Position numbers and translations under genes: made by a program. The notes below the pieces were generated by a model, which did no database searches, was not told the DNA's origin, and worked only from the letters and a program-made list of their open reading frames with translations. Positions 35,541-53,602 of a stretch of 64,000 bases of DNA are shown here, piece by piece; positions within the stretch are counted from its first letter, which is position 1; every line of letters begins with the position of its first letter. Source of the DNA: Nocardioides iriomotensis. GTDB taxonomy: Bacteria; Actinomycetota; Actinomycetes; Propionibacteriales; Nocardioidaceae. The stretch lies in contig NZ_SDPU01000001.1 of assembly GCF_004168035.1 (NCBI RefSeq), forward strand, positions 62,001 to 126,000. Reading direction: 5' to 3'.

Positions 35541-36764
35541 GTGGAAGAAGCACAGGTCGCCGTTATCGGAGCGGGCCCGCACGGGCTCGCAGCAACCGCC
35601 CACCTCGCCCGGGCAGGCGCGGAGGTCCACACGTTCGGCGAGCCCTTGGACTTCTGGAAAGCGATGCCGAAGGGGATGCTGCTCCGGTCGAACTGGACCG
35701 CCACCAGCATCGCCGAGCACGACGGCCCGCTCTCCCTCACGAGCTATTGCGAGAGCACGGGCACGGACCTGCACCTGCCGGTCCCGCTGGACGCCTTCGT
35801 CGACTACGGCATGTGGGTGCAGGGACGTGCGGCCCCCGACGTCGACCGGAGGCGGATCACCCGCATCGACCAGAACGGTGCCGGGTTCTCGATCACGCTG
35901 GCCGACGGCGAGCGGATGGCGGCCCGCACCGTGGCCGTCGCCGCCGGCATCGCACCGTTCACGAACCGTCCGGAGGTGGCCGCCCACCTCCCGCGCGAGC
36001 TGGTCTCGCACACGGCCGACCACGACGACCTGAGCCGGTTCAAGGACCAGGAGGTCCTCGTCGTCGGCGCCGGGCAGAGCGCGCTCGAGTCGGCCGCCCT
36101 CATGCACGAGGCCGGGGTCTCCGTCGAGGTCGTGGCGCGCGCCGACCACATCAACTGGCTGCACGGCGGCAAGTACCACCGAATGCTGGGTCCCAAGCTG
36201 ACCCCCTTCGTCTACGCCCCGACCGATGTCGGCCCGATGGGGCTCTCGCGGATCGTCGCTGTCCCGGACCTGTTCCGCCGGTTCCCCCGCGCGGCGCAGA
36301 AGCCGATGGCCTACCGCGCCATCCGCCCGGCCGGGGCGGCGTGGCTGCAGCCCCGCCTCGTCGACGTGCCGCTGCACCTCGGCCGGAGGATCACCGCCGC
36401 CGACGGCAGCGGCGACAAGGTCACGGTCCGGCTCGACGACGGCACGTCCCGCACGGTCGACCACGTGCTGTTCGGCACCGGCTACCGGGTCGACGTCTCG
36501 AAGTACCCGTTCCTGTCGCCGGAGCTGGTGAGCCGGATCAAGCACGTCGACGGCTACCCCGTGCTGCGCCGCGGCATGGAGTCCAGCGTGCCCGGGCTGC
36601 ACTTCCTGGGCGCCCCGGCAGCCTGGAGCTTCGGGCCGATCATGCGGTTCGTCGCCGGCGGCTGGTACGGCGCGTCGTCCCTGACCCGCAGCATCGTCGA
36701 CCGACGAGCGGCCGCCGGTGCGAGCACCTTCACCGTGCCATCGCCGGTCGCCGACGACCTGTGA
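35541..36764 (+). CDS. FAD/NAD(P)-dependent oxidoreductase, monooxygenase-like
   Basis: The 407-residue flavoprotein has an N-terminal FAD motif (QVAVIGAGPHGLAATAHLAR) and a second nucleotide motif in the middle (EVLVVGAGQSALESAALMHE), the two-dinucleotide layout of flavin monooxygenases and N-hydroxylases. A segment like KGMLLRSNWTATSIAEHDGP replaces the usual FMO linker. It is the first gene of a plus-strand operon with an ATP-grasp ligase, a NodB-like protein and a glycosyltransferase, and overlaps the next start (GTGA). It probably oxidises a sugar or amino substituent of the polysaccharide, but this is inference. Confidence 0.8.
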   Translation: MEEAQVAVIGAGPHGLAATAHLARAGAEVHTFGEPLDFWKAMPKGMLLRSNWTATSIAEHDGPLSLTSYCESTGTDLHLPVPLDAFVDYGMWVQGRAAPDVDRRRITRIDQNGAGFSITLADGERMAARTVAVAAGIAPFTNRPEVAAHLPRELVSHTADHDDLSRFKDQEVLVVGAGQSALESAALMHEAGVSVEVVARADHINWLHGGKYHRMLGPKLTPFVYAPTDVGPMGLSRIVAVPDLFRRFPRAAQKPMAYRAIRPAGAAWLQPRLVDVPLHLGRRITAADGSGDKVTVRLDDGTSRTVDHVLFGTGYRVDVSKYPFLSPELVSRIKHVDGYPVLRRGMESSVPGLHFLGAPAAWSFGPIMRFVAGGWYGASSLTRSIVDRRAAAGASTFTVPSPVADDL

Positions 36765-37972
36765 CCACCACCCAGACCAGCGGACGCGGGACGGCGCGGA
36801 CCGGACCGCCGGGCGTGGGCGCGCTCGTCGTCGGGGGCGACTACCAGGGTCTGGGGATCGCACGCAGCCTGGGCAGGCGCGGCATCCCCGTCGTGGTGGT
36901 CGACGACGAGCGCTCCGTCGCGCGGGTGTCGCGGTACGTGAACCGCGTGGAGCGGGTGAAGGACCTGCGCACCGAGACCGGCACGGTCGACGCGCTGCTC
37001 GACGTGACCACCCGCCTGAAGCTCGACGGCTGGGTGCTCTACCCGACCCGCGAGGAGACCGTCGCGGCGGTGGCGGCGAACCGCGACCTGCTGGCGACGC
37101 GGCTGTCGGTGTCCACGCCCCCGCTCGCGTCGGTGGAGGCCGCGTGGGACAAGCGACAGACCTACCAGGTCGCCGAGTCGCTGGGCGTCGCCGTGCCGCG
37201 CTGCTGGTTCCCGACCTCGGAGGCCGAGCTCGACGCGGTGGACCTGACGTCGCCGGTCGTGCTCAAGCCCGCCATCAAGGAGCACTTCTTCTACGAGACC
37301 CGGGCGAAGGCCTGGCGCGTGGACACCCGGCAGGAGCTCCTCGACGCCTACCGTCGGGCCGCCGCGATCACGGGTCCGGGCGAGATCATCATCCAGGAGC
37401 TCGTTCCCGGCGGCGGGGACCGCCAGGTGGCGTACTGCGCGTTGTTCACCGGCGGCGAGTCGGTCGCCGAGATGACCGTCGTACGCCGCCGGCAGCACCC
37501 CTCCGACTTCGGGCGCGCGAGCACCTTCGTCGAGACCGTCGACCTGCCGGAGCTGCGCGAGCCGTCGGTGCGCTTCCTCCGCGCCATCGGCTACCACGGG
37601 CTCGTCGAGCTCGAGTACAAGCGCGACCCGAGGGACGGCGTCCCCAAGCTGCTCGACGTCAACGCCCGGACCTGGGGCTACCACTCGCTCGGCGCGGCGG
37701 CGGGGGTCGACTTCCCGTACCTCCTGTTCCGCGAGCAGCTCGGGCTGCCCGTCGAGCGGGCGCACGCCCGGCCGGGGGTGCACTGGGTGCGGCTGCTCAC
37801 CGACCTGCCCAACGCCGTCCGGGACGCCCGGGCCGGGCAGCTGCGCGTGCGGCCGTACCTGAGGTCCCTGCGGCGGGCCGACACGGAGGCGGTGTTCTCG
37901 TGGCGCGACCCGCTGCCGGGGCTCTACGAGATCGCCCTGCTCCCCTATCTCGCCGTCCGACGCGGGCTGTGA
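36761..37972 (+). CDS. ATP-grasp family ligase
   Basis: The 403-residue protein starts with a PreATP-grasp Rossmann-like domain (VGALVVGGDYQGLGIARSLG) followed by the ATP-grasp fold: PVVLKPAIKEHFFYE (nucleotide Lys), IIIQELVPGGGDRQVAYCAL, and the metal-binding end VELEYKRDPRDGVPKLLDVN with NARTWG. This is the carboxylate-amine ligase type, which activates a carboxylate as acyl phosphate and joins it to an amine. In a locus that makes a diamino-uronic acid it might amidate the uronate or attach an amino acid. Both ends overlap neighbours by four bases. Confidence 0.85.
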   Translation: MTTTQTSGRGTARTGPPGVGALVVGGDYQGLGIARSLGRRGIPVVVVDDERSVARVSRYVNRVERVKDLRTETGTVDALLDVTTRLKLDGWVLYPTREETVAAVAANRDLLATRLSVSTPPLASVEAAWDKRQTYQVAESLGVAVPRCWFPTSEAELDAVDLTSPVVLKPAIKEHFFYETRAKAWRVDTRQELLDAYRRAAAITGPGEIIIQELVPGGGDRQVAYCALFTGGESVAEMTVVRRRQHPSDFGRASTFVETVDLPELREPSVRFLRAIGYHGLVELEYKRDPRDGVPKLLDVNARTWGYHSLGAAAGVDFPYLLFREQLGLPVERAHARPGVHWVRLLTDLPNAVRDARAGQLRVRPYLRSLRRADTEAVFSWRDPLPGLYEIALLPYLAVRRGL

Positions 37973-39459
37973 CCGCGTCCCGCCTGGAGGTCGACCCCGT
38001 GTTCGAGTCATCCGCGCCGTTCGCGCTCCTCGACTACTTCCGGGTCCCGTACACGGTGGGCGCGGCGGCCGGGCCGTCCCTGCCGCCCGGCTGGGGCCGG
38101 CTGCACGCGACGGCCGGCGGACCGAGCCTGTACTGGCCGGTGACCCCGGACCGTCACGCGTGGGCGGGCCTGTTCCGGGTCGCCGGGTCGACCCTGGCGG
38201 GTCACGTGGCGCAGCAGGCTCCGCGTGCGGTGATGCCCACCGGTGAGTGGCGGCCCGTCGAGCACCTCCACGACCGCGCGGGTGCGCCGGTCGCATCGGT
38301 GTGGCAGGACCGCGACGGGAACGTCTGGCTGCCCTTCGACCCCGGCGAGGTGATGCGCTGCCTGTGGTCCGAGCGGTACACGGCGCTGGGCACGCGGGCC
38401 AAGGCTGTGCGGGCGGCACGCAAGGTCGCGCTCAAGGGCTACTACGCCGCGCGCCCCCTGATGCCGCGGTCGCTGCAGCTGCGGATGCGCCGCACCCTGG
38501 CCCGGCACCAGCAGCAGGACGGCGCGGCGTTCCCGGCCTGGCCCGTCGAGGACGGCCTGCACCGGATGTACGACTGGCTCTTCGACCTGCTGGCCGGGCT
38601 CGCCGGCGAGCAGGTGCCCGCGATCGACACCTGGCCGGACGGCTGCTCGTGGGCCCTCGTGCTCACCCACGACGTGGAGACCCAGCAGGGGGTCGACGAC
38701 ATGGAGCTGCTGCGCGGAGACGAGCGTCGGCTGGGCTACCGGTCCTCGTGGAACTTCGTCCCGGAGCGGTACGACGTGGACGCCGCGCTCGTGCAGCGGA
38801 CGGAGGCCGACGGATGCGAGGTGGGCGTGCACGGCCTCCGCCACGACGGCCGCGACCTGGCCTCGCGCCGGCACCTGATGCGCCGGCTCCCGGCGATCCG
38901 CCGCAACGCGGCGGCCTGGGGAGCCGTCGGCTTCCGGTCGCCGGCGACGCAGCGGGCCTGGTCGCTGATGCCCCTCCTCGGCTTCGAGTACGACGCGTCG
39001 TACACCGACACCGACCCCTACGAGCCGCAGCCGGGTGGCTGCTGCACCTACCTGCCGTTCTTCATCGACGACCTCGTCGAGCTGCCCATCACGGTCCCGC
39101 AGGACCACACCCTCTTCGAGATCCTCCGCGAGACCGACGCCGGCACCTGGCGGCGGAAGGTCGGGGCGCTGCGAGAGCGCGGCGGCCTGGCGCTGGTGCT
39201 GGCGCACCCCGACTACGCGCGCAACCCCCACATGGCGCGCGAGTGGCGTGCGCTGCTCGAGGAGGTGGCCGGCGACACGACCATGTGGCAGCCGCTCGCG
39301 CGCGACGCGGCCCGCTGGTGGCGGGAGCGCGCCGCCTCGGACGTGCGGAGGGACGGCGACGGCTGGACGGTCCGGGGACCGGCCGCCGGTCGTGCCGGCG
39401 TCCGCCTGCTCGGCGACCCGGCCTCCTCGGCCGTACCGCACGGGACCCGGGCGGGCTGA
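37969..39459 (+). CDS. Polysaccharide deacetylase (NodB)-like protein with N-terminal extension
   Basis: The 496-residue cytosolic-looking protein has no signal peptide. The first 200 residues resemble nothing I can name. From about residue 225 it contains a NodB-type domain: ALVLTHDVETQ (metal-binding Asp), EVGVHGLRHDGRD (HxxxH-like HGLRHD), AVGFRSPATQRAW and LVLAHPDY near the end. Such LTHDVD-type relatives occur in many polysaccharide loci and may remove N-acetyl groups from a lipid-linked sugar before export. It overlaps the ATP-grasp gene by GTGA and is followed immediately by the glycosyltransferase. Confidence 0.8.
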   Translation: MTASRLEVDPVFESSAPFALLDYFRVPYTVGAAAGPSLPPGWGRLHATAGGPSLYWPVTPDRHAWAGLFRVAGSTLAGHVAQQAPRAVMPTGEWRPVEHLHDRAGAPVASVWQDRDGNVWLPFDPGEVMRCLWSERYTALGTRAKAVRAARKVALKGYYAARPLMPRSLQLRMRRTLARHQQQDGAAFPAWPVEDGLHRMYDWLFDLLAGLAGEQVPAIDTWPDGCSWALVLTHDVETQQGVDDMELLRGDERRLGYRSSWNFVPERYDVDAALVQRTEADGCEVGVHGLRHDGRDLASRRHLMRRLPAIRRNAAAWGAVGFRSPATQRAWSLMPLLGFEYDASYTDTDPYEPQPGGCCTYLPFFIDDLVELPITVPQDHTLFEILRETDAGTWRRKVGALRERGGLALVLAHPDYARNPHMAREWRALLEEVAGDTTMWQPLARDAARWWRERAASDVRRDGDGWTVRGPAAGRAGVRLLGDPASSAVPHGTRAG

Positions 39460-39460
39460 G

Positions 39461-40717
39461 GTGGCCGGGCTCGTCGGTCCCGCACGTCGCCGCACCGCGC
39501 GCCGGCGGGACTGGCACGTCGCCGTCGTCGTCGAGAACGTCGCCGCCGGCGTCGACACCCGGCTGCGCAAGCAGATCGACGACCTCACGACGGCCGGCTT
39601 CCGGGTCTCCGTCGTGACCCGGCGGTCCCCCGACAACAGCCGCTACCGGGGACGAGCGGAGATCCGCCTGCTGGAGTACCCGGAGCCGCCCGAACCGCGC
39701 GGCGCGGCGGGGTTCGCGGTCGAGTACCTCGTCTCCTTCGGCTGGGCGGCCGTGCACCTGGCCCGGCTTCGCGCCCGCGGGCGGATCGACGTGCTCCAGC
39801 TCTGCCAGCCGCCCGACGTCTACTTCCCCCTGGCGTGGCTGCTGCGCCTCGCAGGCGCGCGCGTGGTGGTCGACCAGCGCGACCTGATGCCGGAGCTGCT
39901 CGCCTCGCGGTACGACGGCCGTCCTCCGGCCGTCCTCGACGCCGCGCTGCGCTGGCTGGAGCGCCGTACGCAGCGGGTAGCCCACCACACCGTCACCGTC
40001 AACGAGCACCTCCGGAGGCGTCTGGTGGAGGCGGGTGCCGACCCGTCCCAGGTCTCGGTCGTCCGCAACGGACCCGTGCACGCCCGCGCCGAGCGGGCGG
40101 TCCCCGACGACGCCCTGCGTCGCGGCCACCGGCACCTGGTCTGCTGGGCCGGGAAGATGGGGCCCCAGGACCGGGTCGATCTCGTGCTGCGGGTGGCCGA
40201 CCACGTCGTGCACGCGATGGGCCGCACCGACTGCGGGTTCGCGATCCTCGGCGACGGCGAGTGCCTCGACGACCTCCGCCGGCAGGCCACCGAGCTGGGG
40301 CTCGACCGCTGGGTGCACTTCACCGACTGGCTGCCCGAGCAGGAGGTGTTCGCGCACCTCGTCACCGCGGACCTGGGTCTCGACACCTCCCTCCAGGAAG
40401 AGGTCTCCCCGGTCAAGGCGATGGAGTACATGGGTTGCGGCCTGCCCGTGGTGTCGTTCGACCTGCCCGAGACCCGAGCCATCACCGAGGGGGCCGGCGC
40501 GCTGGTCCCCGCGGGCGACGAGGTCGCCCTGGCGCGGGCCCTGGTCGCCCTGCTGGACGACCCGGGTCGACGGGAGATGCTCGGTCGGGCTGGCCGGGAG
40601 CGCGTGCGCGACTGGCTGAGCTGGGAGCGGCAGTCCCCGGAGTACGTCCGGGCGGTGGGTCCCGCCGACGGCTCAGTCAGCCCGGCCCGGCCCCACGGGA
40701 CACCCGTAGGTCGGTGA
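39461..40717 (+). CDS. Glycosyltransferase, GT4-like
   Basis: The 418-residue GT-B protein has an N-terminal domain with DWHVAVVVENVAAGVDTRLR, a nucleotide-sugar domain with FAILGDGECLDDLRRQA, and the C-terminal signature SLQEEVSPVKAMEYMGCGLP (EX7E region) plus LVPAGDEVALARAL. It should add one sugar from a nucleotide donor to a lipid-linked acceptor at the cytosolic membrane face. It is the only elongating glycosyltransferase in the locus. The GTG at 39461 is one base after the previous stop. Its 3' end overlaps the convergent gene by 45 bp. Confidence 0.88.
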   Translation: MAGLVGPARRRTARRRDWHVAVVVENVAAGVDTRLRKQIDDLTTAGFRVSVVTRRSPDNSRYRGRAEIRLLEYPEPPEPRGAAGFAVEYLVSFGWAAVHLARLRARGRIDVLQLCQPPDVYFPLAWLLRLAGARVVVDQRDLMPELLASRYDGRPPAVLDAALRWLERRTQRVAHHTVTVNEHLRRRLVEAGADPSQVSVVRNGPVHARAERAVPDDALRRGHRHLVCWAGKMGPQDRVDLVLRVADHVVHAMGRTDCGFAILGDGECLDDLRRQATELGLDRWVHFTDWLPEQEVFAHLVTADLGLDTSLQEEVSPVKAMEYMGCGLPVVSFDLPETRAITEGAGALVPAGDEVALARALVALLDDPGRREMLGRAGRERVRDWLSWERQSPEYVRAVGPADGSVSPARPHGTPVGR

Positions 40718-41734
40718 GCACGGCGGGTCGTGCAGCCCGAACTCGACGCTGAGCCAGGTGTGGTCCTCCTCCGCCTGCTCGACCAGTCCGAGGTACTCGA
40801 GGGCCGGTGGCGAGCGCCACTCCCCGGCGTACCAGGCACCGACGCAGCCATCGAGGTCCCCGGCCGCGTAGCTGCCGTCACCCGTGGTGGCCAGCCAGGG
40901 GACCCAGCCCTCGTAGCAGCCGCGGAGGAACGAGCCCAGGTAGTCGAGCGCGAACGCCGTCGAGTCACGGCTGAACGGGAACGTGCCGTTCTGGTTGCCG
41001 TCCATGACCCCCCAGCGGGGGTCCTGCCACGCCATCACCCCGGTGATGGAGAACGTCTTGGGGCAGACACCCACGCCCTGGTCCGCCTGGTAGTCGTGCC
41101 CGAAGCGGCTGAGGCCGCGGCAGTAGACCCGGGTCGCGGCGTCGGCGTCCTCCACCATGTCCCCGCAGCCGAGGGTGGGCACGCACCGGCCCGCGGGGTA
41201 CTGCTCGCCCTGGTACCACGTCGACTCCCGTACGGCGATCGCCCGGAGGAGGTTGTCCGGTAGCCCCCACTTGCACGCCGCCCACTGGATGTTCTCGTCG
41301 GTGGTGCCGGTGTGGCGCCCGGTCACCCGCGCCAGGAGCCAGCTGTCGAAGCGCGGGTCGTAGCCCTCCGCCTCCCCGCTGCGCGGACGGCTCGCCAACG
41401 CCGCGCGGACCGCGTCCTGGTCCGGCACGGTGCGGTTCGGGGCACTGTTGTCGGGACGGGGCTCCCACGTCGAGCGGTGCACCCGGGCCTCGCAGGTGGG
41501 GTCGTCGGGCAGCTGCGCCCACGACCCGGCCGGCACGAGCTGGAAGTACCCCGCCTCGGGGGGCGGCCGGTGCCCGGGAGCCGGGCCCTCGTCGCCGTCC
41601 GAGATCATCAGGCCCAGGGGTGCCGCCGCCAGCAGGGTGACGGTGAGCAGTACCAGCACGACCTTCCGGCCGGTCCGCCCGCGGACGTGACGTCCACGAG
41701 GGCGGCCGGCCGGTCGCCTCAGCTCAGGACGCAT
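40673..41734 (-). CDS. Secreted lysozyme-fold (transglycosylase-like) protein
   Basis: The 353-residue protein has an arginine-rich N-terminus and one membrane helix or signal (VVLVLLTVTLLAAAPLGLM), then a Pro-rich linker. From about residue 130 it has the lysozyme-like pattern NIQWAACKWGLPDNLLRAIAVRES with Glu as the expected catalytic residue, plus six or more Cys that could form disulphides outside the cell. It is the last gene of the eight-gene minus-strand polysaccharide operon, and its start overlaps the chain-length gene by 11 bp. It may trim the polysaccharide or open peptidoglycan for its passage. Confidence 0.75.
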   Translation of the reverse strand: MRPELRRPAGRPRGRHVRGRTGRKVVLVLLTVTLLAAAPLGLMISDGDEGPAPGHRPPPEAGYFQLVPAGSWAQLPDDPTCEARVHRSTWEPRPDNSAPNRTVPDQDAVRAALASRPRSGEAEGYDPRFDSWLLARVTGRHTGTTDENIQWAACKWGLPDNLLRAIAVRESTWYQGEQYPAGRCVPTLGCGDMVEDADAATRVYCRGLSRFGHDYQADQGVGVCPKTFSITGVMAWQDPRWGVMDGNQNGTFPFSRDSTAFALDYLGSFLRGCYEGWVPWLATTGDGSYAAGDLDGCVGAWYAGEWRSPPALEYLGLVEQAEEDHTWLSVEFGLHDPPCSPTYGCPVGPGRAD

Positions 41735-43100
41735 TCCGCGCGGCGCCCCGCTCGGCGGTGGGCGTCACGGGCTCCACCGGCTCGGCGGGCACGACCGACG
41801 GGTCGGAGTCCGGAGGCCCGGCTCCGGCATCCGGTCGTGACGCGGCCCGCCGGCGCGGCAGCCGCGGGCGGTTGGCCACGACGCCGACCAGGCTTCCGGG
41901 AAGGCCGCGCAACGTGTCGGCGGCCAGCGCGGCGTCCTTGCGGCTGCTTGCTCGGGCGTCGACGACGAGGACGGTGAGGTCGCAGGCGTTGCCCACCAGC
42001 ATCGTGTCGGGCAGCTCGAGCACCGGTGCCGCGTCGATGACGACGACAGCCTTCGCGGCCAGCCGCTTGACGACCGCCAGGTAGTCGTCGATGTCCACCC
42101 GGGACATGCCCGACGAGGTTCCCGCCGCCAGCACGCGCAGGTTGGGGTGGGACGTGAACTGGACCGCGGAGATCAGGCTGCTCTCGCCGTGCAGCACCTC
42201 GACCACGCCCGGAGCCCGCTCGAGGCCCAGGACCCGGTGCAGGTCGGGCCGTCGCTGGTTGCCCGACACGAGCACCACGTCCCGTCCGACGTCGGCCAGC
42301 GCCACCGCGAGGTTGGTCGCGACGGTGGTCGCGCCGGCACCGCGTCGCGGCGAGGTGACCATGAGCGTGACGTTCTTGCTCCGCTGACCGATGAGGTTGC
42401 TGAGCCGGGCCGCGAGGTGGCCGAACCCACCTGGTCCGTGCTCGAGCGGCGCCTGGACCTTCGCCCGCGCGGGGACCGACAGGAGGACCTCGGCGCCCGT
42501 GACCCGGGCGGTGTCGGCAGGCCCGCGCAGGTGACCGCGGAGCATGTCCCAGAGGAAGGCGGCCGCGAAGCCGAGGGCCAGACCGACCATGAGAGCGAGC
42601 ACCACCACGACGGCGTAGTTGGGAGGCGACGGCGCGGAGGGCAGGACCGGCTCGGTGATCACCTGCGCCACCGGGTTCTTCAGGTCGAGGTTGCGGTACT
42701 CGACGTAGGCCTGCGCGAACGCCTCCGCACCCGCGCGGGCCGCGACGGGCGTCGACGCGGTGTAGACGAAGTCGAGGACCTGGGCGTCCACCGGGACCGT
42801 GATGTCCAGGCCCGCACTGGCCGCGGACGTCGACATGTTCAGCGACGATGCGGCCCGCTCGGCCACCTCGGCGGACAGGGCGACCTCCCGCTCGGTCCCC
42901 ATCTGCGGAAGGATCGGCGCACCGCTCTCCGCGTTGTCGGGGCCGACCAGGACAGCGCCCGACGAGACGTACTCCGGCGGCTGGGACGCGAGGACCCAGC
43001 CGGCCGTGAGGCTCGTCAGCACGGCCACGGCCAGGATCGGCCAGAGGAACGTGCGAAGCACGCCGCTGACCGGACTTCGGTTCATTGCTGTGTCGTTCAT
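41724..43100 (-). CDS. Chain-length determinant/BY-kinase-like protein with degenerate ATP site
   Basis: The 458-residue protein combines a Wzz domain (membrane helices near residues 20-38 and 162-184) with a cytoplasmic BY-kinase-like P-loop domain. The P-loop reads [16 protein letters not shown] (250-265), with Ala257 where the essential Lys of GEGKST belongs. The usual Walker A' DADLRRP is SGNQRRP (279-285), losing its Asp. Walker B ([10 protein letters not shown], 353 on) keeps its Asp. The C-terminus lacks a Tyr cluster. It probably sets polymer length by structural means without autophosphorylation. The ATG follows GGGGAAA and overlaps the polymerase stop. Confidence 0.87.
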
Positions 43101-44575
43101 GGTCTTTCCCCTGTGGTGCGACGGTTGGCGATGTCGGTGCGGGCCGGCTCGGCCCCGGTGTCGGGAGGCGACGGCCCGTTCGCTGCTCCCGCCACCGCGG
43201 CGAGGGCCAGCAGGGAGAACAGGCAGTCCGCGGCAGCGCGGTAGGTCAGGTGCGGGTCGAAGTTCATCAGCACGGCACCGACGGCGATGCCGGTGAACGC
43301 GCCGAGCGCTGCCACGGAGCTCCACGACGGGAGCCCACCGATGCGGCGCCACAGCCAGCGCAGGCTGACGACCAGGAAGACGACGTACGACGCGAACAGC
43401 GGCAGGCCACCGCCCCACAGGAGCCACGTGTAACCGCTCTCGATCCAGACGTACCCGAGGCCCTCGCTCGCCACCTCGACCCGGGCCGCCGGCCGGACGC
43501 CCAGCAGCAGGTTGTTCCCGGACAGCAGCTCGGGCCAGAAGTAGGTCTGCAGGTTCGTGAGCCGCGTCGTCCAGCTCACCGGCAGGCCGTGCACGGTCTG
43601 GAAGCCGGCAAGCCGGTGCTCGACCACGGGCCAGACCGCCAGCAGGCCGATGGCCCCACCGACGGGCGCGTACTTCAACAGGTCGAGGCGGCGCAGGGCG
43701 GCCGCCACGCAGACGACGCCGACGACGAGCCCGAGTGCACTGGAGAACTCCGCGGCGGCGAACGTCCCGAGCACGAAGACACCGCCGGCCCCGAGGAGCA
43801 GCACCGGGTGCCGACGCGCCTTCCACCAGAGGCCGGCGACCACCGCGAGGTTCATCACCAGCAGGTCGGCCGTCGCCGCCGGAAGGCCGATCGTGGAGCC
43901 ACCGCGCGGCTGCTCGAGCGCGGCGTCGTACCCGAACGGCGTGTACAGCGGCCGGAGCAGCTCGCGCACGCCGAGGAGGTCGAGCGCCTGGAGGATGCCG
44001 ATGACCGCGACCACCGCCGCCGTCACCACGGACGTGACGAGCGCCCACCGGACCTGGGACTGGGTGGTGACCGACGCGCGGACGACGGCGTAGCCGACGA
44101 GGAACTTCCACAGCACCAGCGCGTGGCTGAAGTCGTCCCCCGTCGGGTGCCGACCCCGGACGTACATGAAGGCGAGGGGCACGAACGACGCGCACACGGC
44201 CATCGCCACCAAGGTCCACTCGACCTTGCTCAGCCGCAGCGTGAGGCGGTGTCCGAGCGGCATCATCGCCACCGCGCGCAGCGCCAGGACGCCGGCGACG
44301 AACACCACCACGGCCTCGTTCGGCCGGAGCCCGGGGACCAGACGGTCGCGGTCGATGCCGGCGACGAGCGGGGTGACACCGATGACGAGGAGCGCGGCGG
44401 TGGCGGGACGTACCCAGATGAGGGCTCCGAGCGCCACCGCGGCGACCGCCCCGGCCGCCATCACCGGGATCCGGGCGACGACCACCCCCAGGGCGACGGC
44501 TGCGAACGCGGTCACGACGACGAGGGCGGCGGCCGGCGTCACCGGTGCGCGCCTGCTCTCGAGATAGCCGCTCAC
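43097..44575 (-). CDS. Wzy/O-antigen ligase-like polymerase
   Basis: The 492-residue protein has about 12 membrane segments and a large extracytoplasmic loop between about residues 290 and 380 ([35 protein letters not shown]), with conserved Arg and Gly as in the Wzy_C region. It fits the polymerase that links lipid-carried repeat units outside the membrane. Position between the flippase and chain-length genes supports this. The GTG at 44575 overlaps the flippase stop. Confidence 0.85.
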
Positions 44576-46212
44576 TGCACGACCTCCTCGGTCAGCACCT
44601 GCCGGGAGGCCTTGCCCCGGACGCCGTGGCGCAGGGCGGCCAGCTCCGGTGAGCGCATCACGAGCTGCACCCCCAGGAACACGACCGCGCCGACGAGGGT
44701 GCCGAGCACCAGCGACAGGAGCCACCCGGCCCGGCCGCCCACGTTCGCGACCAGCACCTCCGCGACGACGAGCACGGGGAGGGCCATCGCCAGCGCGCCC
44801 ACGGACAGCCGCAGCGCGAGCGGCGCCAGCCGGCGCGCGGGCAGCTCGCTCCGGCGGATCATGGCGCGGGTCAGGTGCAGGCCGCCGACGAGCGCTCCGG
44901 CGGCGTACGCCGCACCCAGGAGGCGCACCGCCTGCTCCCCCGGTACGGCGAGCGTGGCCAGCGCCAGGGAGAGGCACACGGCGGTCTGGATGCTCATGGA
45001 CACCAGGGGGGTGCGCGTGTCCTGCCGGGCGTAGGCGGCCTGCATCGAGATGTAGAACGCGGTCTGGCCGACGATGCCCGGGGCGATCGTCGCGAGCGCG
45101 CCGGCCATCATGCCGACCCCGGCGGCCGAGGCCATCGCGCCGACGGCGATCGAGTGGGCGACCGGTCCCGCCAGCAGGACGTAGCCGATCGCGGCCGGGA
45201 CGGCCAGGAACAGCGCGAGGTCGAGTCCCTCGAGGTAGGTCTCGCGGAAGTCCCGCGCCTGCCGGGCCCGGTGCATCCGGGACAGCCGCGGGATGAGCGC
45301 GAGCCCCACCGGCGTGGCGACGAGCTCGATGGGGAGGGAGTAGAAGTTGAAGACCATCTGGAGCGCGACGGTGCCTCCCGCGGCACGTCCGGCGAGCAGC
45401 AGCAGGACCAGCATCTGGAGGGCGAGAAGACCTGCCTGCACCACGGCGCGGACGGCGCGTCGCACGACCGACATCACCTCGGGGTCGCGCCACCCGGCCC
45501 GTGGCCGCACCGTCACCCCCGAGGAACGGGCTCCCGCCCACGCCAGCGCGGCGTTGGCCGCGACCGCGGTGGTCGAGCCGAGTCCGAGCAGCACCAGCAC
45601 ACCGGTGGGCTGGCCGCCCTGCTCGGCGACCGAGCCGTAGACCAGCCACGTGGCCGCCAGCATCGCGATCATCCCGACGTTCTCGACAGCGGGGGCGAGT
45701 GCGGCCAGGGCGAACCGACGGTGGGCGTTGAGGACGGATGCCGAGGCGCCGGACAGCGCGTAGAGGAACACCTGCGGGCACATCAGCAGGAGCAGCAGCC
45801 GGGCCTGGTCGGTCTGCGTGGCCACCGCGGCCTCGCCGCCGGGCGCGAGCAGCCCGATGGCCGTCGGGATCACGAGGACGACGACCGGGACCAGGACCAG
45901 CATCGCCAGCCAGGAGAACCCGAGGAAGCCGCCGCTGACCCGCGCCGTCCGGTCCGGGTCTCCCGCGTCGACGTGCCGGACCAGGGCTGGCACGAGCAGC
46001 GAGGCGAACAGCGACCCGGCGAGGAACCCGTAGTAGACGAGGTTGGGCAGCGAGTTGGTCAGCTGGAACGTGTCGCCGAACGTGGTGGGGCCCAGCACGC
46101 CGCCGACCATCACGACCCGCGCCACCCCGGTGAGCCGGCTGACCGCCGTCCCCACACCGGCCACGAGGGAGTCGCGGGCAGTGCCCGAGAACTCCTCCCT
46201 CGTGGCAGTCAT
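44572..46212 (-). CDS. MurJ/MviN-family flippase, Wzx-like role
   Basis: The 546-residue MOP-superfamily protein shows about 14 membrane helices and begins with [20 protein letters not shown], the TM1-TM2 motif of MviN/MurJ proteins. It also has [21 protein letters not shown] and [20 protein letters not shown]. Inside an operon with an initiating transferase and polymerase it should flip the lipid-linked repeat unit rather than lipid II. The start (TGATG) shares one base with the preceding stop. Confidence 0.88.
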
Positions 46213-46895
46213 CAGCGTGCTCCGCGTTCGAGCACCGCCGGGAGGGTGCGGAGCAGGATCACGAGGTACAGCAGCAACGTGCGATGCGCGACGTAGTCCA
46301 CGTCGAGCCGGAGCCCTTCGGTCATGGTCAGGCGGTTGCGGCCGCTCACCTGCCACAGCCCGGTCAGACCGGGCCGTACGTCGAAGCGGGGGGACGCCCA
46401 GGGCGGGAACTCGACCATCTCGCCGGGCAGGCAGGGGCGCGGCCCGACGATCGACATCTCACCCCTCAGCACGTTGAAGAGCTGCGGGAGCTCGTCGAGG
46501 CTGGTCCGCCGCAGGAAGGCGCCGACCCGGGTGACGCGGGGGTCGTCGGAGAGCTTGTAGAGCCCGCCCTCCGGCTCCACCTCGCCGCGCAGCAACCGGG
46601 TCACGTACTCCGCGTGGATCGCCGGGTCGGAGTCGCGCCGCATCGTCCGGAACTTGTACATCACGAACTCCTGCCGCCGCGCCCCGACGCGCACCTGCCG
46701 GAACCAGCCACCTCCGCGGCTGGAGAGCACCACGAGGAGGTACACGCCGACGATCAGCGGCGCGGCGAGGAACAGCACGCCGCAGGCGATCAGGAGGTCG
46801 AGCCCCCGGACGGCCGCCTCACGCCCACGGGGGGACGGACGGAGGCGGCCTCGGTGGCGGGGGGCTGCCACCTCCCGGGCTTGGTCCGTGCTCAT
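46212..46895 (-). CDS. Undecaprenyl-phosphate sugar-phosphotransferase (initiating)
   Basis: The 227-residue protein has a single membrane segment ([20 protein letters not shown]) and the catalytic domain of the bacterial sugar transferase family: [45 protein letters not shown] and [14 protein letters not shown]. It is the short PglC-like form without extra N-terminal helices. It starts repeat-unit assembly by moving a sugar phosphate from UDP-sugar to the lipid carrier. GGGAGG precedes the ATG by six bases. It overlaps the acetyltransferase gene by ATGA. Confidence 0.92.
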
Positions 46896-47551
46896 CCGGA
46901 CCTCCCCAGGGAACCATTGACGAACCGGTACCGGGAGAACGACGTCGCGTCCTCCTGGACCCGTCCGGCGACGTCGGCGAGGTGGGAGACCTCGCCGTGG
47001 ATCGTGGCGGGATTGCCGTAGGCGACCACGCCCGCCGGCAGGTCTCGCGTGACGACGGAGCCCGCACCGACCAGGGTGCCCTCGCCGATGCGGACGAACG
47101 GCAGCACGGTGACGTTGACGCCGAGCTGCGCCCCGGCGCCGATGCGGGGCCCGGACATCAGCCGCGCCGAGTCGGCCTGACCGGGGTACAGGTCGTTGGC
47201 CAGCGTCACGCCCGGGGCCAGGAAGGCGTCGTCGTCGATCTCGGTGTGCTGCGCGACGTAGCAGTTGCTGTGGATCTTGACCCGCGACCCGAGCCGGCAG
47301 CCGTAGTCCACCACCGTGTTGCTCCACAGCGAGACGTCGTCACCGATGCGGCACTGCTCGCGGACGATCACGTGGTGCCCGGTCTCGAACCGCTCGCCGA
47401 TCTCGCTGCCGACGTAGATCACCGTGCCGCTGCGCAGGTTGGCACCGCCGCCGAGGGTCAGGTGCTGGTCGACGTCGCGCGCCACGTGGTAGCCGATGAG
47501 CACGTCCTGGTCGGCGTTCAGGCCCGGGCCGACCTCGATCCCGATGGTCAT
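46892..47551 (-). CDS. Left-handed beta-helix acyltransferase, WbpD/WlbB-like
   Basis: The 219-residue protein is built of hexapeptide repeats (IGERFETGHHVIVREQCRIG; GDDVSLWSNTVVDYGCRLGS; LGVNVTVLPFVRIGEGTLVG), with a loop containing DLYPGQADSARL. It ends with GAGSVVTRDLPAGVVAYGNP, the acetyl-CoA site typical of nucleotide-sugar N-acetyltransferases. Next to an aminotransferase and a Gfo/Idh dehydrogenase it would acetylate the new 3-amino group of a UDP-uronic acid. Other acyl groups cannot be excluded. Confidence 0.85.
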   Translation of the reverse strand: MTIGIEVGPGLNADQDVLIGYHVARDVDQHLTLGGGANLRSGTVIYVGSEIGERFETGHHVIVREQCRIGDDVSLWSNTVVDYGCRLGSRVKIHSNCYVAQHTEIDDDAFLAPGVTLANDLYPGQADSARLMSGPRIGAGAQLGVNVTVLPFVRIGEGTLVGAGSVVTRDLPAGVVAYGNPATIHGEVSHLADVAGRVQEDATSFSRYRFVNGSLGRSG

Positions 47552-48693
47552 CGCAGGTCCCGCGCGGCGACCTCGTTGACGGTCTTGGCGACCCGCTCGG
47601 CGTCCTCGACGGACAGGAACGGCGACATCGGCAGCGACAGCAGCTGCGCGGCGTCGGCCTCGACCGTCGGGAGGGGCCGGTCGGTCAGGTGGCGGTACGG
47701 CGACATCAGGTGGCAGGGCGTCGCGTAGTGGATGCCGGTCCCGATCCCGAGCTCGGCGAGCTCCGACCTGACCCGGTCGCGGTCGTGGACGCGGACCACG
47801 GCGAGGTGATAGACACCGCGGCTGCCCTCCAGCTCGGAGACGGGCCGGACGACCGTGCGGTCCAGGAGCTCGTGGTAGACCGCCGCGACATCGCGACGTC
47901 GGGTGTTCCAGTCGTCGAGCCGCGACAGCTTCGCCTCGAGCACGACGGCCTGCAGGGCGTCGAGGCGGCTGTTCGTGCCCACGTAGGCGTGGTCGTGGTG
48001 GGCCGTGCCGCCGGCACGGCCGTGGTCGCGCAGTGCCCGCAGCGTCTGGGCCAGCTCCGGGTCGTCGGTCACCACGGCACCGGCGTCACCGAAGGCACCG
48101 AGGTTCTTGCCGGGGTAGAAGCTGGTGCACCCGGCCGCGCCGAAGGAACCCGCCCGGCGGCCGCGCCAGGCGGCTCCCTGGGCCTGGGCCATGTCCTCGA
48201 TCACGAGGAGGTCGAGCTCGTCGGCCGTCCGGCACAGCGCGTCCATGTCGGGCATCTGGCCGTAGAGGTGCACCACCGCGACCGCTCGGGTGCGGGGGGT
48301 CACCGCGGCGGCCAGGGTCTCGGGGGTGAGCAGGAGGGTGTCCGGGTCGACGTCCGCAAAGGCCGGCTGGGCACCGGCGAGGACGACCGCCTCCGCGGTC
48401 GCGACGAACGTGTTGGCCGGGACGACGACCTCGTCGCCCGGACCGATCCCGAGCGCCCGCATCGACAGGTGCAGCGCGTCGGTCCCGTTGGCCATGCCGA
48501 TGGCGTAGCGCCGGTCGCAGTACGCCGCCCACGCGTCCTCGAAGCGCTGCACGGCCTCCCCGCCGACGAACGCGTTGACGTCGAGCAGGCCGTTCCAGCG
48601 CGCGAGCACCTCGTCCCGGACGGCCTGCGTGGTCCCGGACAGGTCGAGGAAGGGGATGGCGTCGAGCGACGCCGCGGCCCCCGCCCGGCTCAT
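47548..48693 (-). CDS. DegT/DnrJ-family PLP sugar aminotransferase, WbpE-like
   Basis: The 381-residue enzyme has the nucleotide-sugar aminotransferase signatures IGMANGTDALHLSMRALGIG, VVVPANTFVATAEAV, the PLP-Asp in LLVIEDMAQAQGAAW, and the PLP-Lys region TSFYPGKNLGAFGDAG. GTNSRLDALQAVVL and the GIHYATPCHL segment bind the nucleotide sugar. It would convert a 3-keto-UDP-uronic acid to the 3-amino sugar using glutamate. ATGA overlaps join it to both neighbours. Confidence 0.92.
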   Translation of the reverse strand: MSRAGAAASLDAIPFLDLSGTTQAVRDEVLARWNGLLDVNAFVGGEAVQRFEDAWAAYCDRRYAIGMANGTDALHLSMRALGIGPGDEVVVPANTFVATAEAVVLAGAQPAFADVDPDTLLLTPETLAAAVTPRTRAVAVVHLYGQMPDMDALCRTADELDLLVIEDMAQAQGAAWRGRRAGSFGAAGCTSFYPGKNLGAFGDAGAVVTDDPELAQTLRALRDHGRAGGTAHHDHAYVGTNSRLDALQAVVLEAKLSRLDDWNTRRRDVAAVYHELLDRTVVRPVSELEGSRGVYHLAVVRVHDRDRVRSELAELGIGTGIHYATPCHLMSPYRHLTDRPLPTVEADAAQLLSLPMSPFLSVEDAERVAKTVNEVAARDLR

Positions 48694-49790
48694 CGGACCC
48701 GCTCGATGGCGGTGGGCACCGTCTGCCGCGGAATGGCGGTCTCCGCCGGCGGCAGGGCGCCTTCGCGCACCTCGGAGAGCTGCACCGCCCGGCGGAGCTG
48801 GGACGACAGCTGCGCCGCCTCCAGCACCTCGACCACGGCGAGGCCGTTCTGCCCGTCGGTGGTCGGCCGCATGCCGGTCAGGGCGCAGTCGACGAAGTGC
48901 TCGTCCTCGAGGGAGAGGGGCTCGTTGACGACCAGGTAGGGCGCCACGACGTCGCCGTAGCGGTAGGACATGGGCGGCTGTGTCAGGTCGCCCTCGGTCT
49001 GGGTCTGGGCGACGCCCTTGTCGTGGACGCGCACGCGCTCGTCGGCGGCCAGGTCGTCGAACACCACCATCTTCTCGCTGCCGACCATCGTGACCCGCCG
49101 GACCTTGCAGGGGTCGAGCCAGCTCACGTGCACGTTGGCGACGACGTCGGGGTCCTCGTAGTAGAGCCGGAGGTAGGCGACGTCCTCGAGCCTCTTGTGC
49201 GCGTGCCGGGACGCCCAGCACTCGACCGCCGTCGGCTCGCCGCCCAGCACGTAGTTGAGGATGGAGATGTCGTGCGGGGCGAGGTCGAAGATGACGTTGA
49301 CGTCGTGCTGGTAGAGACCGAGGTTGAGCCGGGCGGTGTGCAGGTAGTACAGGCGGCCGAGCACGCCCTTGCGCACCATGTCGCGGAGGCTCCAGACGGC
49401 CGAGTGGTACTCGAAGGTGTGTCCGACCATCAGGACGACGCCCTGCGCCTGGGCCGCGTCGACCATCGCCCGGGCGTCCGCTGCCGTGGTCGCCAGGGGC
49501 TTCTCGACGAGCACGTGCTTGCCGGCGGCGATCGCCTCGAGCGCGAGCCTCGCGTGGGTGCTCGGCGGGGTGGCGATCACCAGGGCGTCGATGTCGGGGA
49601 GCGCCTCCGTGAGCTGGGCGGCCCGGCCGAGCCCCGGGAAGTGCCGCTCCAGGGCCGTGTGGCGGTCCGGGCTGGGGTCGATCACCGTGACCGTCTCGAC
49701 CGAGTCCAGCGCCCGGAGCGCTCGTACGTGCTTCGAACCCCAGTAGCCGCAGCCGGCGACTCCGACGCGCAATCCCACAGAAGCTGACAC
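48690..49790 (-). CDS. Gfo/Idh/MocA-family nucleotide-sugar dehydrogenase, WbpB/WlbA-like
   Basis: The 366-residue oxidoreductase has the NAD motif RVGVAGCGYWGSKHVRAL, the family EKP (HVLVEKPLATTA) and the substrate-site HxxxD-like VIFDLAPHDISILNYVLGGE. These match the branch that oxidises the 3-position of UDP-GlcNAc-uronic acid. It is the first gene of the minus-strand operon. The GTG at 49790 is assumed; an internal start at GLRVGVAGC is possible. No gene for the UDP-GlcNAc 6-dehydrogenase that would supply its substrate is present in the window. Confidence 0.9.
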   Translation of the reverse strand: MSASVGLRVGVAGCGYWGSKHVRALRALDSVETVTVIDPSPDRHTALERHFPGLGRAAQLTEALPDIDALVIATPPSTHARLALEAIAAGKHVLVEKPLATTAADARAMVDAAQAQGVVLMVGHTFEYHSAVWSLRDMVRKGVLGRLYYLHTARLNLGLYQHDVNVIFDLAPHDISILNYVLGGEPTAVECWASRHAHKRLEDVAYLRLYYEDPDVVANVHVSWLDPCKVRRVTMVGSEKMVVFDDLAADERVRVHDKGVAQTQTEGDLTQPPMSYRYGDVVAPYLVVNEPLSLEDEHFVDCALTGMRPTTDGQNGLAVVEVLEAAQLSSQLRRAVQLSEVREGALPPAETAIPRQTVPTAIERVR

Positions 49791-53200: not shown

Positions 53201-53602
53201 GAAGTCACCACACACCTGGTCGGTCTTGTAGGCGAGGTCGGCGGTCGCGTCGGTGTCGTAGGTCGCGGTGAGGTCCTGGTGGTCCTTGCCCATGCCCCCG
53301 ATCTCGTTGCCCTGGCGGTAGAGCTCGTCGAGCTCGTAGAACCGCATGTAGTTGGAGTCGAACGTCTTCACCCAGTTGCTCGCGACGTAGAACGTGCCGT
53401 CCAGGCCGTTCTGCTCGAGGAGGGGCGCTGCGTTGCGGTACTGGGAGCTCAGCCCGTCGTTGAAGGTCAGCGAGACCACGGTCGGTGCCGCCGCCGTCAC
53501 CGGCGCAGCCGTCACCACCAGTCCCGCCGCCGCGGTCACCAGGGCGGCCACCGCCGCCACGCCTGCTCTCGTCCGCCTGGTCAGCCGCGTCGTCGCGCCC
53601 AT
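50222..53602 (-). CDS. Secreted tandem NodB polysaccharide deacetylase with Ig-like and IPT repeats
   Basis: The 1126-residue protein has a signal peptide (residues 1-38), two NodB domains (about 40-270 and 285-500), four Ig-like repeats of about 90 residues (about 535-925, each with DAAGN- or GT-rich turns) and two IPT/TIG-like domains at the C-terminus. The second NodB domain has the full active-site set: SLTFDDGLRSQ and IGGHTSEHVDL (HxxxH). The first has TFNDG and GGMGKDHQ, losing the base Asp and one metal His, so it is probably inactive. No sortase motif or membrane anchor is seen. It lies upstream of the polysaccharide operon on the same strand but has its own terminator. Confidence 0.9.
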   Translation of the reverse strand: MGATTRLTRRTRAGVAAVAALVTAAAGLVVTAAPVTAAAPTVVSLTFNDGLSSQYRNAAPLLEQNGLDGTFYVASNWVKTFDSNYMRFYELDELYRQGNEIGGMGKDHQDLTATYDTDATADLAYKTDQVCGDFQQLTAWGYHPASFSYPFGVSNAQAQQIVQSCGYLTGRMPGGLAATGPDYAESVPPAQPMALRTANLPGGAITLQSLQDAVTAAGANGGGWLPFAFNRVCSQAESGYSTCMGTPQAIDRDVFSSFLVWLKSQEAEGVTVRTVGEVMGAPHPTLEQRPFVVSLTFDDGLRSQYNLRQIFARHNAHGTFYINSGAVDAGEPGVMTWPQIHDLANAGHDIGGHTSEHVDLLASNTTFDFKWHQTCDDRARLLEQGFNAVSFAFPFGSMNDDTSALARACGYQSARKAGTVTSDGPIFSETIPPTENPWAIRILGTNYNGAVTLEALQLAVNQARAHGGSWLPTLFHEICYAGQPGFSSCMDGYRPISDTTIDQFLTWLETLSGQNVSVKTITDVIGGGQTAPRVAVSGPAAGATVNAAQPVLSGTATGSSSVSVSVYDGPYSMGTPLATLTAPVTNGSWSVQPASPLPSGTYTVQVAQNSGTVGTSVPRTFIVNASGPADTTAPAPTVTSPTSGSTVRTPTPTLAGAAGTAAGDDTAVTVRVYSGSTAAGTPAQTTTVPVGAGGTWSTSANALADGPWTVTVTQGDAAGNLATSPATTFNIDTTVVDSTPPVVAVTAPASGATVTTSTPTVSGTGGTAAGDTNQVTLRISPSSPAQGEVQNLQATVGTDGSWTATPAALADGTWTVQATQVDAAGNIGTSTAVTFTVNTQPADTTAPAVTITSPVTGSSISSTSLTASGAAGTQQGDAATVTLDVFAGSAATGTPVRTTTAAVTSGSWTTTLTGLAAGTYTLRARQSDAAGNVGTSGLVTVTMSAPPRITGVNPANLGQGASAVTVRVNGSGFLAGATVAIGGTGVTSTVTARTATRVTLSVSVAGDAPTGARSVTVTNPNGSTVTCATCLTIVAGPTLTSVSPATIRRGRDTTVTLTGTGFTNQTDVTVSGAGVTVRSTTRLSATRMTAVLRVTAGAALTTRSVTVTQGNNFGSFTLANGVTVVT

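What the first reader, a model, noticed from the sequence alone, without database searches (positions are those of the whole stretch)
35541..39459. FAD oxidoreductase, ATP-grasp ligase and NodB-like protein as an uncharacterised tailoring set
Three coupled, cytosolic-looking enzymes precede the glycosyltransferase. A ligase that activates carboxylates in a locus that seems to make a uronic acid suggests amidation or amino-acid attachment; the NodB-like protein could de-acetylate and the flavoenzyme could oxidise the freed amine. I know of no described pathway with this combination.
Basis: inference. Interest (0 to 1): 0.58.

Follow-up and report, generated by a model that had tools for sequence, protein, structure and literature searches.

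The report
Conserved sugar-tailoring enzyme cassette
Three neighbouring genes in an actinobacterium's polysaccharide locus form a real enzyme cassette shared across several bacterial phyla; it probably strips a sugar of its acetyl group, couples a small acid to it and then modifies that addition, a decoration not described in the papers searched.

Summary
35541-39459 carries three overlapping genes (FMO-like flavoenzyme, ATP-grasp ligase, NodB-fold deacetylase), followed one base later by a GT4 glycosyltransferase. Of 41 loci from other genomes with enough flank, FMO is at 36 and NodB at 38, in several phyla. NodB, ligase, GT4 and Psd occur fused in various pairs.

Unforeseen: where the FMO is missing, a phosphatidylserine-decarboxylase-like gene (Psd) lies directly behind the ligase (5 of 5 loci; 2 of 3 in a second sample). 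Those 7 genomes show no FMO relative at E<=1e-40. Three loci have both.

The "uronic acid" premise is weak: no UDP-sugar dehydrogenase match lies on the window's contig; nearby sugar genes look like a 3-amino-sugar set.

Best reading: GT4 adds an N-acetylated sugar, NodB deacetylates it, the ligase acylates the freed amine, and FMO or Psd modifies the addition. Order and substrates are inferred. The paper searches showed no description.

The parts
35541..36764 (+). FMO-like FAD/NAD(P)H oxidoreductase (407 aa), GTG start
   Evidence: Pyr_redox_2 1.6e-20, Lys_Orn_oxgnase 3.2e-07; A3 profile's best PDB match 5nmw, 'Flavin-containing monooxygenase'
36761..37972 (+). ATP-grasp ligase (403 aa), start overlaps FMO stop
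   Evidence: PF15632 39.0 bits (cut-off 29.1); AlphaFold model pLDDT 89.5, VIA Z 27.7 to 2pn1, 25.9 to L-amino acid ligase 3vot, 25.4 to PylC 4ffl
37969..39459 (+). NodB/CE4-fold deacetylase with an extra N-terminal region (496 aa), start overlaps ligase stop
   Evidence: pLDDT 90.2, Z 23.4 to 3rxz, 22.2 to HP0310 and PuuE; no Pfam hit
39461..40717 (+). GT4 glycosyltransferase (418 aa), fourth gene of the run
   Evidence: PF13692 2.4e-22; relatives fused to NodB relatives in L011, L028, L042, L072
40673..41734 (-). conserved protein without Pfam hit, first of the divergent polysaccharide genes
   Evidence: 54-66% identical relatives in 7 of 54 loci, each time behind the GT4 gene
41724..43061 (-). 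chain-length/tyrosine-kinase-like (Wzc-type) protein
   Evidence: TIGR03018 82.7 bits, below its cut-off 230.65
43097..44575 (-). membrane protein, polymerase/ligase-like by eye only
   Evidence: no family hit; label is inference
44572..46212 (-). MurJ/Wzx-type flippase
   Evidence: PF03023 4.6e-45
46212..46895 (-). initiating sugar-phosphate transferase
   Evidence: PF02397 4.4e-56
46892..47551 (-). hexapeptide acetyltransferase, nearest solved relative QdtC
   Evidence: 3fs8 (QdtC) 108 bits; 3mqg (LPS acetyltransferase, WlbB by recall) 62 bits
47548..48693 (-). DegT-type sugar aminotransferase
   Evidence: 7b0d 322 bits, QdtB 270 bits, WbpE 259 bits
48690..49778 (-). Gfo/Idh sugar 3-dehydrogenase-like
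   Evidence: NF040723 UDP-GlcNAc 3-dehydrogenase 179.6 bits, below its cut-off 450

Best explanation
A four-step cytosolic tailoring module for a lipid-linked sugar chain. (1) The GT4 enzyme adds an N-acetylated amino sugar. (2) The NodB-fold enzyme removes the N-acetyl group. (3) The ATP-grasp ligase, spending ATP, couples the carboxylate of a small acid, most likely an amino acid joined through a side-chain carboxyl so that its amino-acid head stays free, to the freed amine. (4) The FMO-like enzyme acts on that attached head group (N-oxygenation, or oxidative loss of the carboxylate), at the point where other genomes use a Psd-type pyruvoyl decarboxylase. Shown here: the genes, folds, motifs, co-occurrence, fusions and the FMO/Psd exchange. 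Inferred: that they work on one substrate, the order, the acid, and the chemistry of step 4.
For: Co-occurrence: the same 6 of 196 genomes for ligase, FMO and NodB at >500 bits, adjacent. 41 flanked loci (of 54): FMO at 36 (34 within 400 bp), NodB at 38. All 11 genomes checked (locus cut, without NodB, or of Psd type) have a NodB relative at E<=1e-30, some partial. Fusions read through without a stop: NodB-ligase in L060, NodB-GT4 in L011, GT4-NodB in L028 and L042, Psd-ligase in L043 (for the open frame, for the domains), GT4-NodB in L072. Where FMO is missing, Psd lies 4-39 bp behind the ligase (5 of 5), Fisher p 7.5e-5 in 41 loci, and these 5 genomes show no FMO relative at E<=1e-40. The locus Psd type (417-448 bits) is in 0 of 12 FMO genomes that I picked. 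Second sample: 18 FMO-only, 2 Psd-only, 0 both, 1 neither, Fisher p 0.014. Ligases of 45 FMO and 5 Psd loci are equally alike (57.5% between, 58.2% and 59.2% within), with no column that separates them, so the ligase probably does the same job in both. In 11 second-sample stretches without a NodB, a different CE4-like deacetylase is present.
Against: No substrate, product or activity was tested. Three loci (L011, L021, L043) carry both FMO and Psd, so the exchange is not strict. Some triplets (Actinoplanes L034, L037, L055) have no GT4 or polysaccharide gene of the tested kinds within about 10 kb. In the second sample, L107, L112, L114, L121 and L123 show no deacetylase of either kind in the stretch fetched; L119, L122 and L124 neither, but they are short. 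L078 has the ligase without any of the partners tested; genome G971 has no FMO (its locus is cut). Motifs are not uniform: FMO GxGQSA in 35 of 40 and [AG]TGY motif in 29 of 40; NodB HxxxH in the form searched in 23 of 36 and the motif-3 form in 21 of 36. Apart from its best match and a few monooxygenases, most solved matches of the FMO profile are thioredoxin or ferredoxin reductases. A Psd needs a free alpha-amino acid (family knowledge), so a plain alpha-aminoacyl amide would not fit step 4.
Confidence: 0.4

Rival explanations
1. The ligase amidates a uronic acid carboxylate with an amine or amino acid; NodB works on another sugar and FMO/Psd prepare or modify the amine.
For: Direct precedent: the C-terminal ATP-grasp domain of Cj1438, fused to a glycosyltransferase, amidates GlcA with ethanolamine-phosphate or serinol-phosphate (passages of PMC11800379). 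The window's genome has two UDP-glucose-dehydrogenase-like genes on other contigs, so GlcA may be in the polymer; a nucleotide-sugar dehydrogenase (TIGR03026, over cut-off) lies beside the triplet in L013.
Against: No PF03721 match on the window's contig; local sugar genes look like a 3-amino-sugar set; fusions tie the ligase to the deacetylase or Psd and the deacetylase to GT4; P0002 hits PF15632 and no other Pfam family at E<=0.01.
Confidence: 0.25
2. FMO or Psd make the building block (a hydroxylamine or a decarboxylated amine) which the ligase then attaches; they act before the ligase, as a decarboxylation is thought to supply ethanolamine-phosphate in Campylobacter (recalled).
For: Psd lies directly behind the ligase or is fused to a ligase paralogue; the FMO profile's best solved match is 5nmw, by recall an alkaloid N-oxygenase.
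Against: Two different building blocks should leave specificity marks in the ligase; none separates the two groups. The one locus Psd tested (L059) has a strongly hydrophobic stretch (19-residue mean 2.54), which fits a membrane-bound substrate better.
Confidence: 0.2
3. The set makes a soluble or lipid-linked small molecule, not a polysaccharide part; nearness to polysaccharide genes is incidental.
For: Some acidobacterial and chloroflexotal loci carry acyl-carrier, thioesterase or phosphopantetheinyl-transferase genes (Pfam) and PKS-like or AMP-ligase genes (by eye) next to it; Actinoplanes loci lack the tested polysaccharide genes within about 10 kb.
Against: Fusions of NodB with GT4 in L011, L028, L042 and L072, from different phyla or classes; 14 of 24 actinobacterial loci have flippase, initiating transferase and chain-length relatives in the fetched stretch.
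Confidence: 0.15

Closest known systems
Campylobacter jejuni Cj1438 C-terminal amidoligase (ATP-grasp, TupA-like) with its glycosyltransferase domain
   Same: ATP-grasp ligase coupled to a glycosyltransferase tailoring a growing capsule chain (passages of PMC11800379)
   Different: other ATP-grasp branch as far as Pfam tells (P0002 matches PF15632 only), amidates GlcA carboxylate, no NodB, FMO or Psd partner in the passages read
Mycothiol/bacillithiol logic: GT4 (MshA/BshA), deacetylase (MshB/BshB), amino-acid ligase (MshC/BshC) (recalled)
   Same: order of roles: GT4 adds GlcNAc, a deacetylase frees the amine, a ligase acylates it with an amino acid
   Different: other enzyme folds for deacetylase and ligase (recalled); P0004 scores 42.3 bits against MshA's cut-off of 462.5; soluble thiol versus presumed glycan
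XrtA/PEP-CTERM exopolysaccharide loci (FemAB, CE4 deacetylase, AMP ligase, decarboxylase; make-up recalled)
   Same: FemAB relatives in some loci (TIGR03019, 114-133 bits for three tested, below cut-off 260) and exosortase-like genes (by eye) in L025, L035, L041
   Different: no FemAB- or exosortase-type profile match at window 28000-54000; ATP-grasp plus FMO/Psd instead of AMP ligase plus PLP decarboxylase
3rxz, Mycobacterium smegmatis polysaccharide deacetylase
   Same: best fold match of P0003 (Z 23.4, rmsd 2.9, 228 aligned)
   Different: chain of 286 residues against 496, so most of P0003's N-terminal region has no counterpart; the entry title says only 'putative polysaccharide deacetylase'

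Membership tests
ATP-grasp ligases (superfamily) | ATP-grasp fold over the whole chain | tested here: met
   pLDDT 89.5; Z 27.7 (2pn1), rmsd 3.1, 290 aligned; PurK and biotin carboxylase tied
ATP-grasp ligases (superfamily) | metal/ATP residues ([DE]xNxR; two lysines) | tested here: met
   [DE].N.R 39 of 39, K of KPA/KRA 38 of 39, DKRxT 38 of 39
PF15632 ATPgrasp_Ter | score over the gathering cut-off | tested here: met
   39.0 against 29.1 bits
TupA-like amidoligase (Cj1438 type) | Pfam match to a TupA-like ATP-grasp family | tested here: not met
   only PF15632 at E<=0.01; so filed as 'may work like', not as a member
NodB/CE4 deacetylases | NodB fold | tested here: met
   Z 23.4 (3rxz), 22.2 (HP0310, PuuE), 17.9 (ArnD)
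NodB/CE4 deacetylases | Pfam Polysacc_deac_1 match | tested here: not met
   no family for P0003 at E<=0.01
NodB/CE4 deacetylases | catalytic Asp/Glu and His motifs | tested here: met
   HDxE 36 of 36, HPDY 36 of 36, H292 invariant, H288 in at least 90%; the stricter patterns for motif 2 and motif 3 hit only 23 and 21 of 36
NodB/CE4 deacetylases | N-deacetylase activity | not testable with these tools
   needs enzyme assay
Class B flavin monooxygenases / N-hydroxylases | FAD and NADPH dinucleotide motifs | tested here: met
   GxGPxG 40 of 40; GxGQSA 35 of 40 (the same five miss GxGxxA)
Class B flavin monooxygenases / N-hydroxylases | [AG]TGY-type C-terminal motif (motif recalled) | tested here: inconclusive
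   29 of 40
Class B flavin monooxygenases / N-hydroxylases | a named NCBIfam equivalog over cut-off | tested here: not met
   84 families matched, none of the 25 shown over cut-off
Phosphatidylserine decarboxylases (the exchange partner, not in the window) | PF02666 match and GS self-cleavage site | tested here: met
   PF02666 134-143 bits for L043, L076, L077; GSQVD, DVHVNR and NER in 7 of 7 of A4
Phosphatidylserine decarboxylases (the exchange partner, not in the window) | NCBIfam Psd equivalog cut-off | tested here: not met
   three tested (L059, L060, L021), best 163.9 bits against 183; with A4 the locus type scores 417-448 bits, other Psd copies 71-95
Mycothiol enzymes MshA-C | MshA equivalog cut-off | tested here: not met
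   42.3 against 462.5 bits

The most novel reading that the evidence does not exclude
A new type of glycan decoration: an amino acid is ligated by an ATP-grasp enzyme to the freed amine of a sugar, and its free amino-acid head is then either decarboxylated by a Psd-family pyruvoyl enzyme (to my knowledge the first of that family to act on a glycan and not a phospholipid) or oxidised by an FMO to an N-oxygenated group such as a hydroxylamine, oxime or nitro group. The two unrelated enzymes would be interchangeable finishing steps of one pathway shared by several phyla.
Probability: 0.22. Interest if true: 0.8.

Novelty: new variant of a known kind. Interest (0 to 1): 0.58.

Why it matters
It turns a loose guess about three genes into a defined, recurrent cassette with a testable order of reactions, present in isolates (Kribbella, Aeromicrobium, Geodermatophilus, Actinoplanes, Bradyrhizobium). 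The FMO/Psd exchange gives a sharp chemical clue, because both enzyme types commonly act on amino-acid or amine head groups. If the ligase's acid and acceptor were found, the genomes that carry this set could be assigned a sugar decoration at once, and a Psd-family enzyme working on a glycan would, to my knowledge, be new.

Tried and rejected
Uronic acid made in the locus: looked for PF03721 in the whole genome; 3 matches, none on contig C1; two are Ugd-like, the third is short and weak (28.3 bits). PIG-L as a replacement of NodB in L023 (27.3 bits, cut-off 28.2): rejected, because the same contig also carries a GT4-NodB fusion. One search's list 'FUSION?' was partly wrong, since it ignored reading frame (window, L034, L037, L024, L058 are not fusions); I kept those read through as one protein or given as the same ORF; L039 and L045 share a frame by coordinates only. 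Psd loci as one clade of the ligase tree: 4 changes at least; one-clade test p-AU 0.0445, with the group named beforehand by gene content but borderline, so repeated exchange is likely and not shown. The gene callers were partly misled by antisense frames in high-GC loci; counts rest on profile searches. The fold search of P0003 barely tested its N-terminal region; no claim on it. Sampling: one search finds close relatives only and may leave out genomes near the window's; near-copies (L039/L045, L022/L026) were not removed from the 41; 13 of 54 were dropped for short flanks. L051 was not checked for a NodB elsewhere. The profile bits use models built from these same loci. Fisher values ignore relatedness. 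Papers: nine searches for the set and one for the Campylobacter precedent. Searches matched 34 and 19 papers, of which 12 each were listed and none opened. Only PMC11800379 was opened (passages).


Full report
What is there. The window is part of a 4.7 Mb genome of high GC content. At 35541-40717 four genes run head to tail on the + strand: an FMO-like flavoenzyme, an ATP-grasp ligase, a NodB-like protein and a GT4 glycosyltransferase. The first three overlap by their start and stop codons and the fourth starts after one spare base. On the other strand, from 40673 to 49778, lie polysaccharide genes: Wzc-type, MurJ/Wzx-type, an initiating sugar transferase, and an acetyltransferase, aminotransferase and Gfo/Idh dehydrogenase of the 3-amino-sugar kind.

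The proteins. P0002 passes the PF15632 cut-off and its model (pLDDT 89.5) is a whole ATP-grasp fold; 2pn1, PurK and biotin carboxylase are tied at the top (Z 26.9-27.7), L-amino acid ligase 3vot (25.9) and PylC (25.4) follow. P0003 has no Pfam or NCBIfam hit, yet its model (pLDDT 90.2) is a clear NodB fold (3rxz Z 23.4) with an N-terminal region that the search barely tested; HDxE and HPDY are in 36 of 36 relatives, while my stricter patterns for motifs 2 and 3 hit 23 and 21 of 36. P0001 is FMO-like: FAD motif in 40 of 40, NADPH motif GxGQSA in 35 of 40 and a [AG]TGY motif in 29 of 40 relatives. Its profile's best solved match is 5nmw, a flavin-containing monooxygenase (by recall an alkaloid N-oxygenase), but most further matches are thioredoxin or ferredoxin reductases. 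None of the three window proteins has a membrane segment by hydropathy.

Is the triplet conserved? Yes. A scan of named genomes gave 54 loci from Actinomycetota, Acidobacteriota, Chloroflexota, Gemmatimonadota, Verrucomicrobiota and a Bradyrhizobium. Of the 41 with at least 2.5 kb on both sides, 36 have the FMO (34 within 400 bp of the ligase) and 38 have NodB. In an even draw of 196 genomes of the window's order, matches above 500 bits to the ligase, to NodB and to the FMO fall in the same six genomes, side by side; eight more genomes have a weaker FMO relative (239-346 bits) and two others a distant ligase. It is rare at E<=1e-80: 3 of 396 genomes of the phylum, and 2 of 297 and 26 of 301 in the phyla of two other carriers, each count including the starting carrier or carriers.

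Fusions. NodB-ligase (L060), NodB-GT4 (L011), GT4-NodB (L028, L042) and Psd-ligase (L043) read through without a stop (Pfam itself names only some of these domains, the others come from the profiles), and L072 has GT4-NodB in one ORF. One FMO carries a methyltransferase domain (L062).

The exchange. Five of the 41 loci have no FMO; all five have a Psd-like gene 4-39 bp behind the ligase, and their genomes show no FMO relative at E<=1e-40 (four of the five are metagenome bins by title, so absence is not proof). The Psd type of these loci scores 417-448 bits; it is absent from the 12 FMO genomes that I picked, of which 6 have another Psd at 71-94 bits and 6 have none at E<=1e-10. L011, L021 and L043 have both FMO and Psd. 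A second sample, chosen by the ligase alone, gave 18 loci with FMO only, 2 with Psd only (L076, L077; no FMO relative in those genomes), none with both, and one with neither (L078); three more were cut. Of those three genomes two have an FMO elsewhere and one (G971) has none. Ligases of the two groups are no more different from each other than within groups.

Deacetylase everywhere? All 11 genomes checked for a NodB relative have one, some partial. In 11 stretches of the second sample without a NodB, a different CE4-like protein is present (PF01522 over cut-off in the 4 scanned). In others (L107, L112, L114, L121, L123, and the short L119, L122, L124) no deacetylase of either kind was seen in the stretch fetched.

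What it most likely does. Fusions and co-occurrence make GT4, NodB, ligase and FMO/Psd likely steps of one route. A deacetylase tied to a ligase suggests that the freed amine is acylated. Psd enzymes need a free amino-acid head, and FMOs often oxidise amines (established knowledge of the families), so the added group may be an amino acid joined by its side chain. The order and the chemistry are inference. The main rival is amidation of a uronic acid, which has a good precedent in Campylobacter (passages of PMC11800379) but weak local support: no UDP-sugar dehydrogenase match lies on this contig, though the genome has two elsewhere and L013 has one beside its triplet.

Known or new? The parts belong to known folds; the combination and the FMO/Psd exchange did not appear in the listings of nine searches of the held papers, which do not cover most subscription journals. 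I rate it a new variant of a known kind, polysaccharide tailoring.

Noticed in passing
L076:7502-8791, L077:10237-11523, L110:11253-12527 and 8 further stretches: A CE4-like deacetylase whose parts look circularly permuted: HxxxH at residue 74-81 in 11 of 11 and GDID near the C-terminus in 5 of 11; residues 35-303 match NodB profile positions 226-462 (99.3%), the C-terminal 48 match 185-234 only weakly (9.3%).
   Followed up: partly
L043:11162-13222: Psd-like domain fused to a second, divergent ATP-grasp ligase, beside a full FMO-ligase pair.
   Followed up: partly
L042, L021: Two or more ligase and FMO copies in one locus, which may mean more than one ligation step.
   Followed up: no
L022, L029, L040, L046: Acyl-carrier (L046), thioesterase and phosphopantetheinyl-transferase (L022) genes by Pfam, and PKS-like or AMP-ligase genes by eye, beside the triplet in Acidobacteria and Chloroflexota.
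   Followed up: no
window 50222-53560 -: 1112-aa protein, secreted-looking and with a deacetylase-like TFNDG stretch by eye, no NCBIfam hit at E<=1e-20; a 62% identical relative lies near the triplet in L056.
   Followed up: no
window 40673-41734 -: Protein without any Pfam hit at E<=0.01, conserved behind the GT4 gene in 7 of 54 loci, from Kribbella and Nocardioidaceae.
   Followed up: no
L066:5776-6963, L067:6050-7279: More distant FMO relatives (340-342 bits) in other gene clusters (sugar or sulfotransferase genes by eye); L067 also holds a distant ATP-grasp gene about 4.5 kb away.
   Followed up: partly
window genome G000: No Psd relative at E<=1e-10 in the window's own genome, unlike several other carriers.
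   Followed up: no
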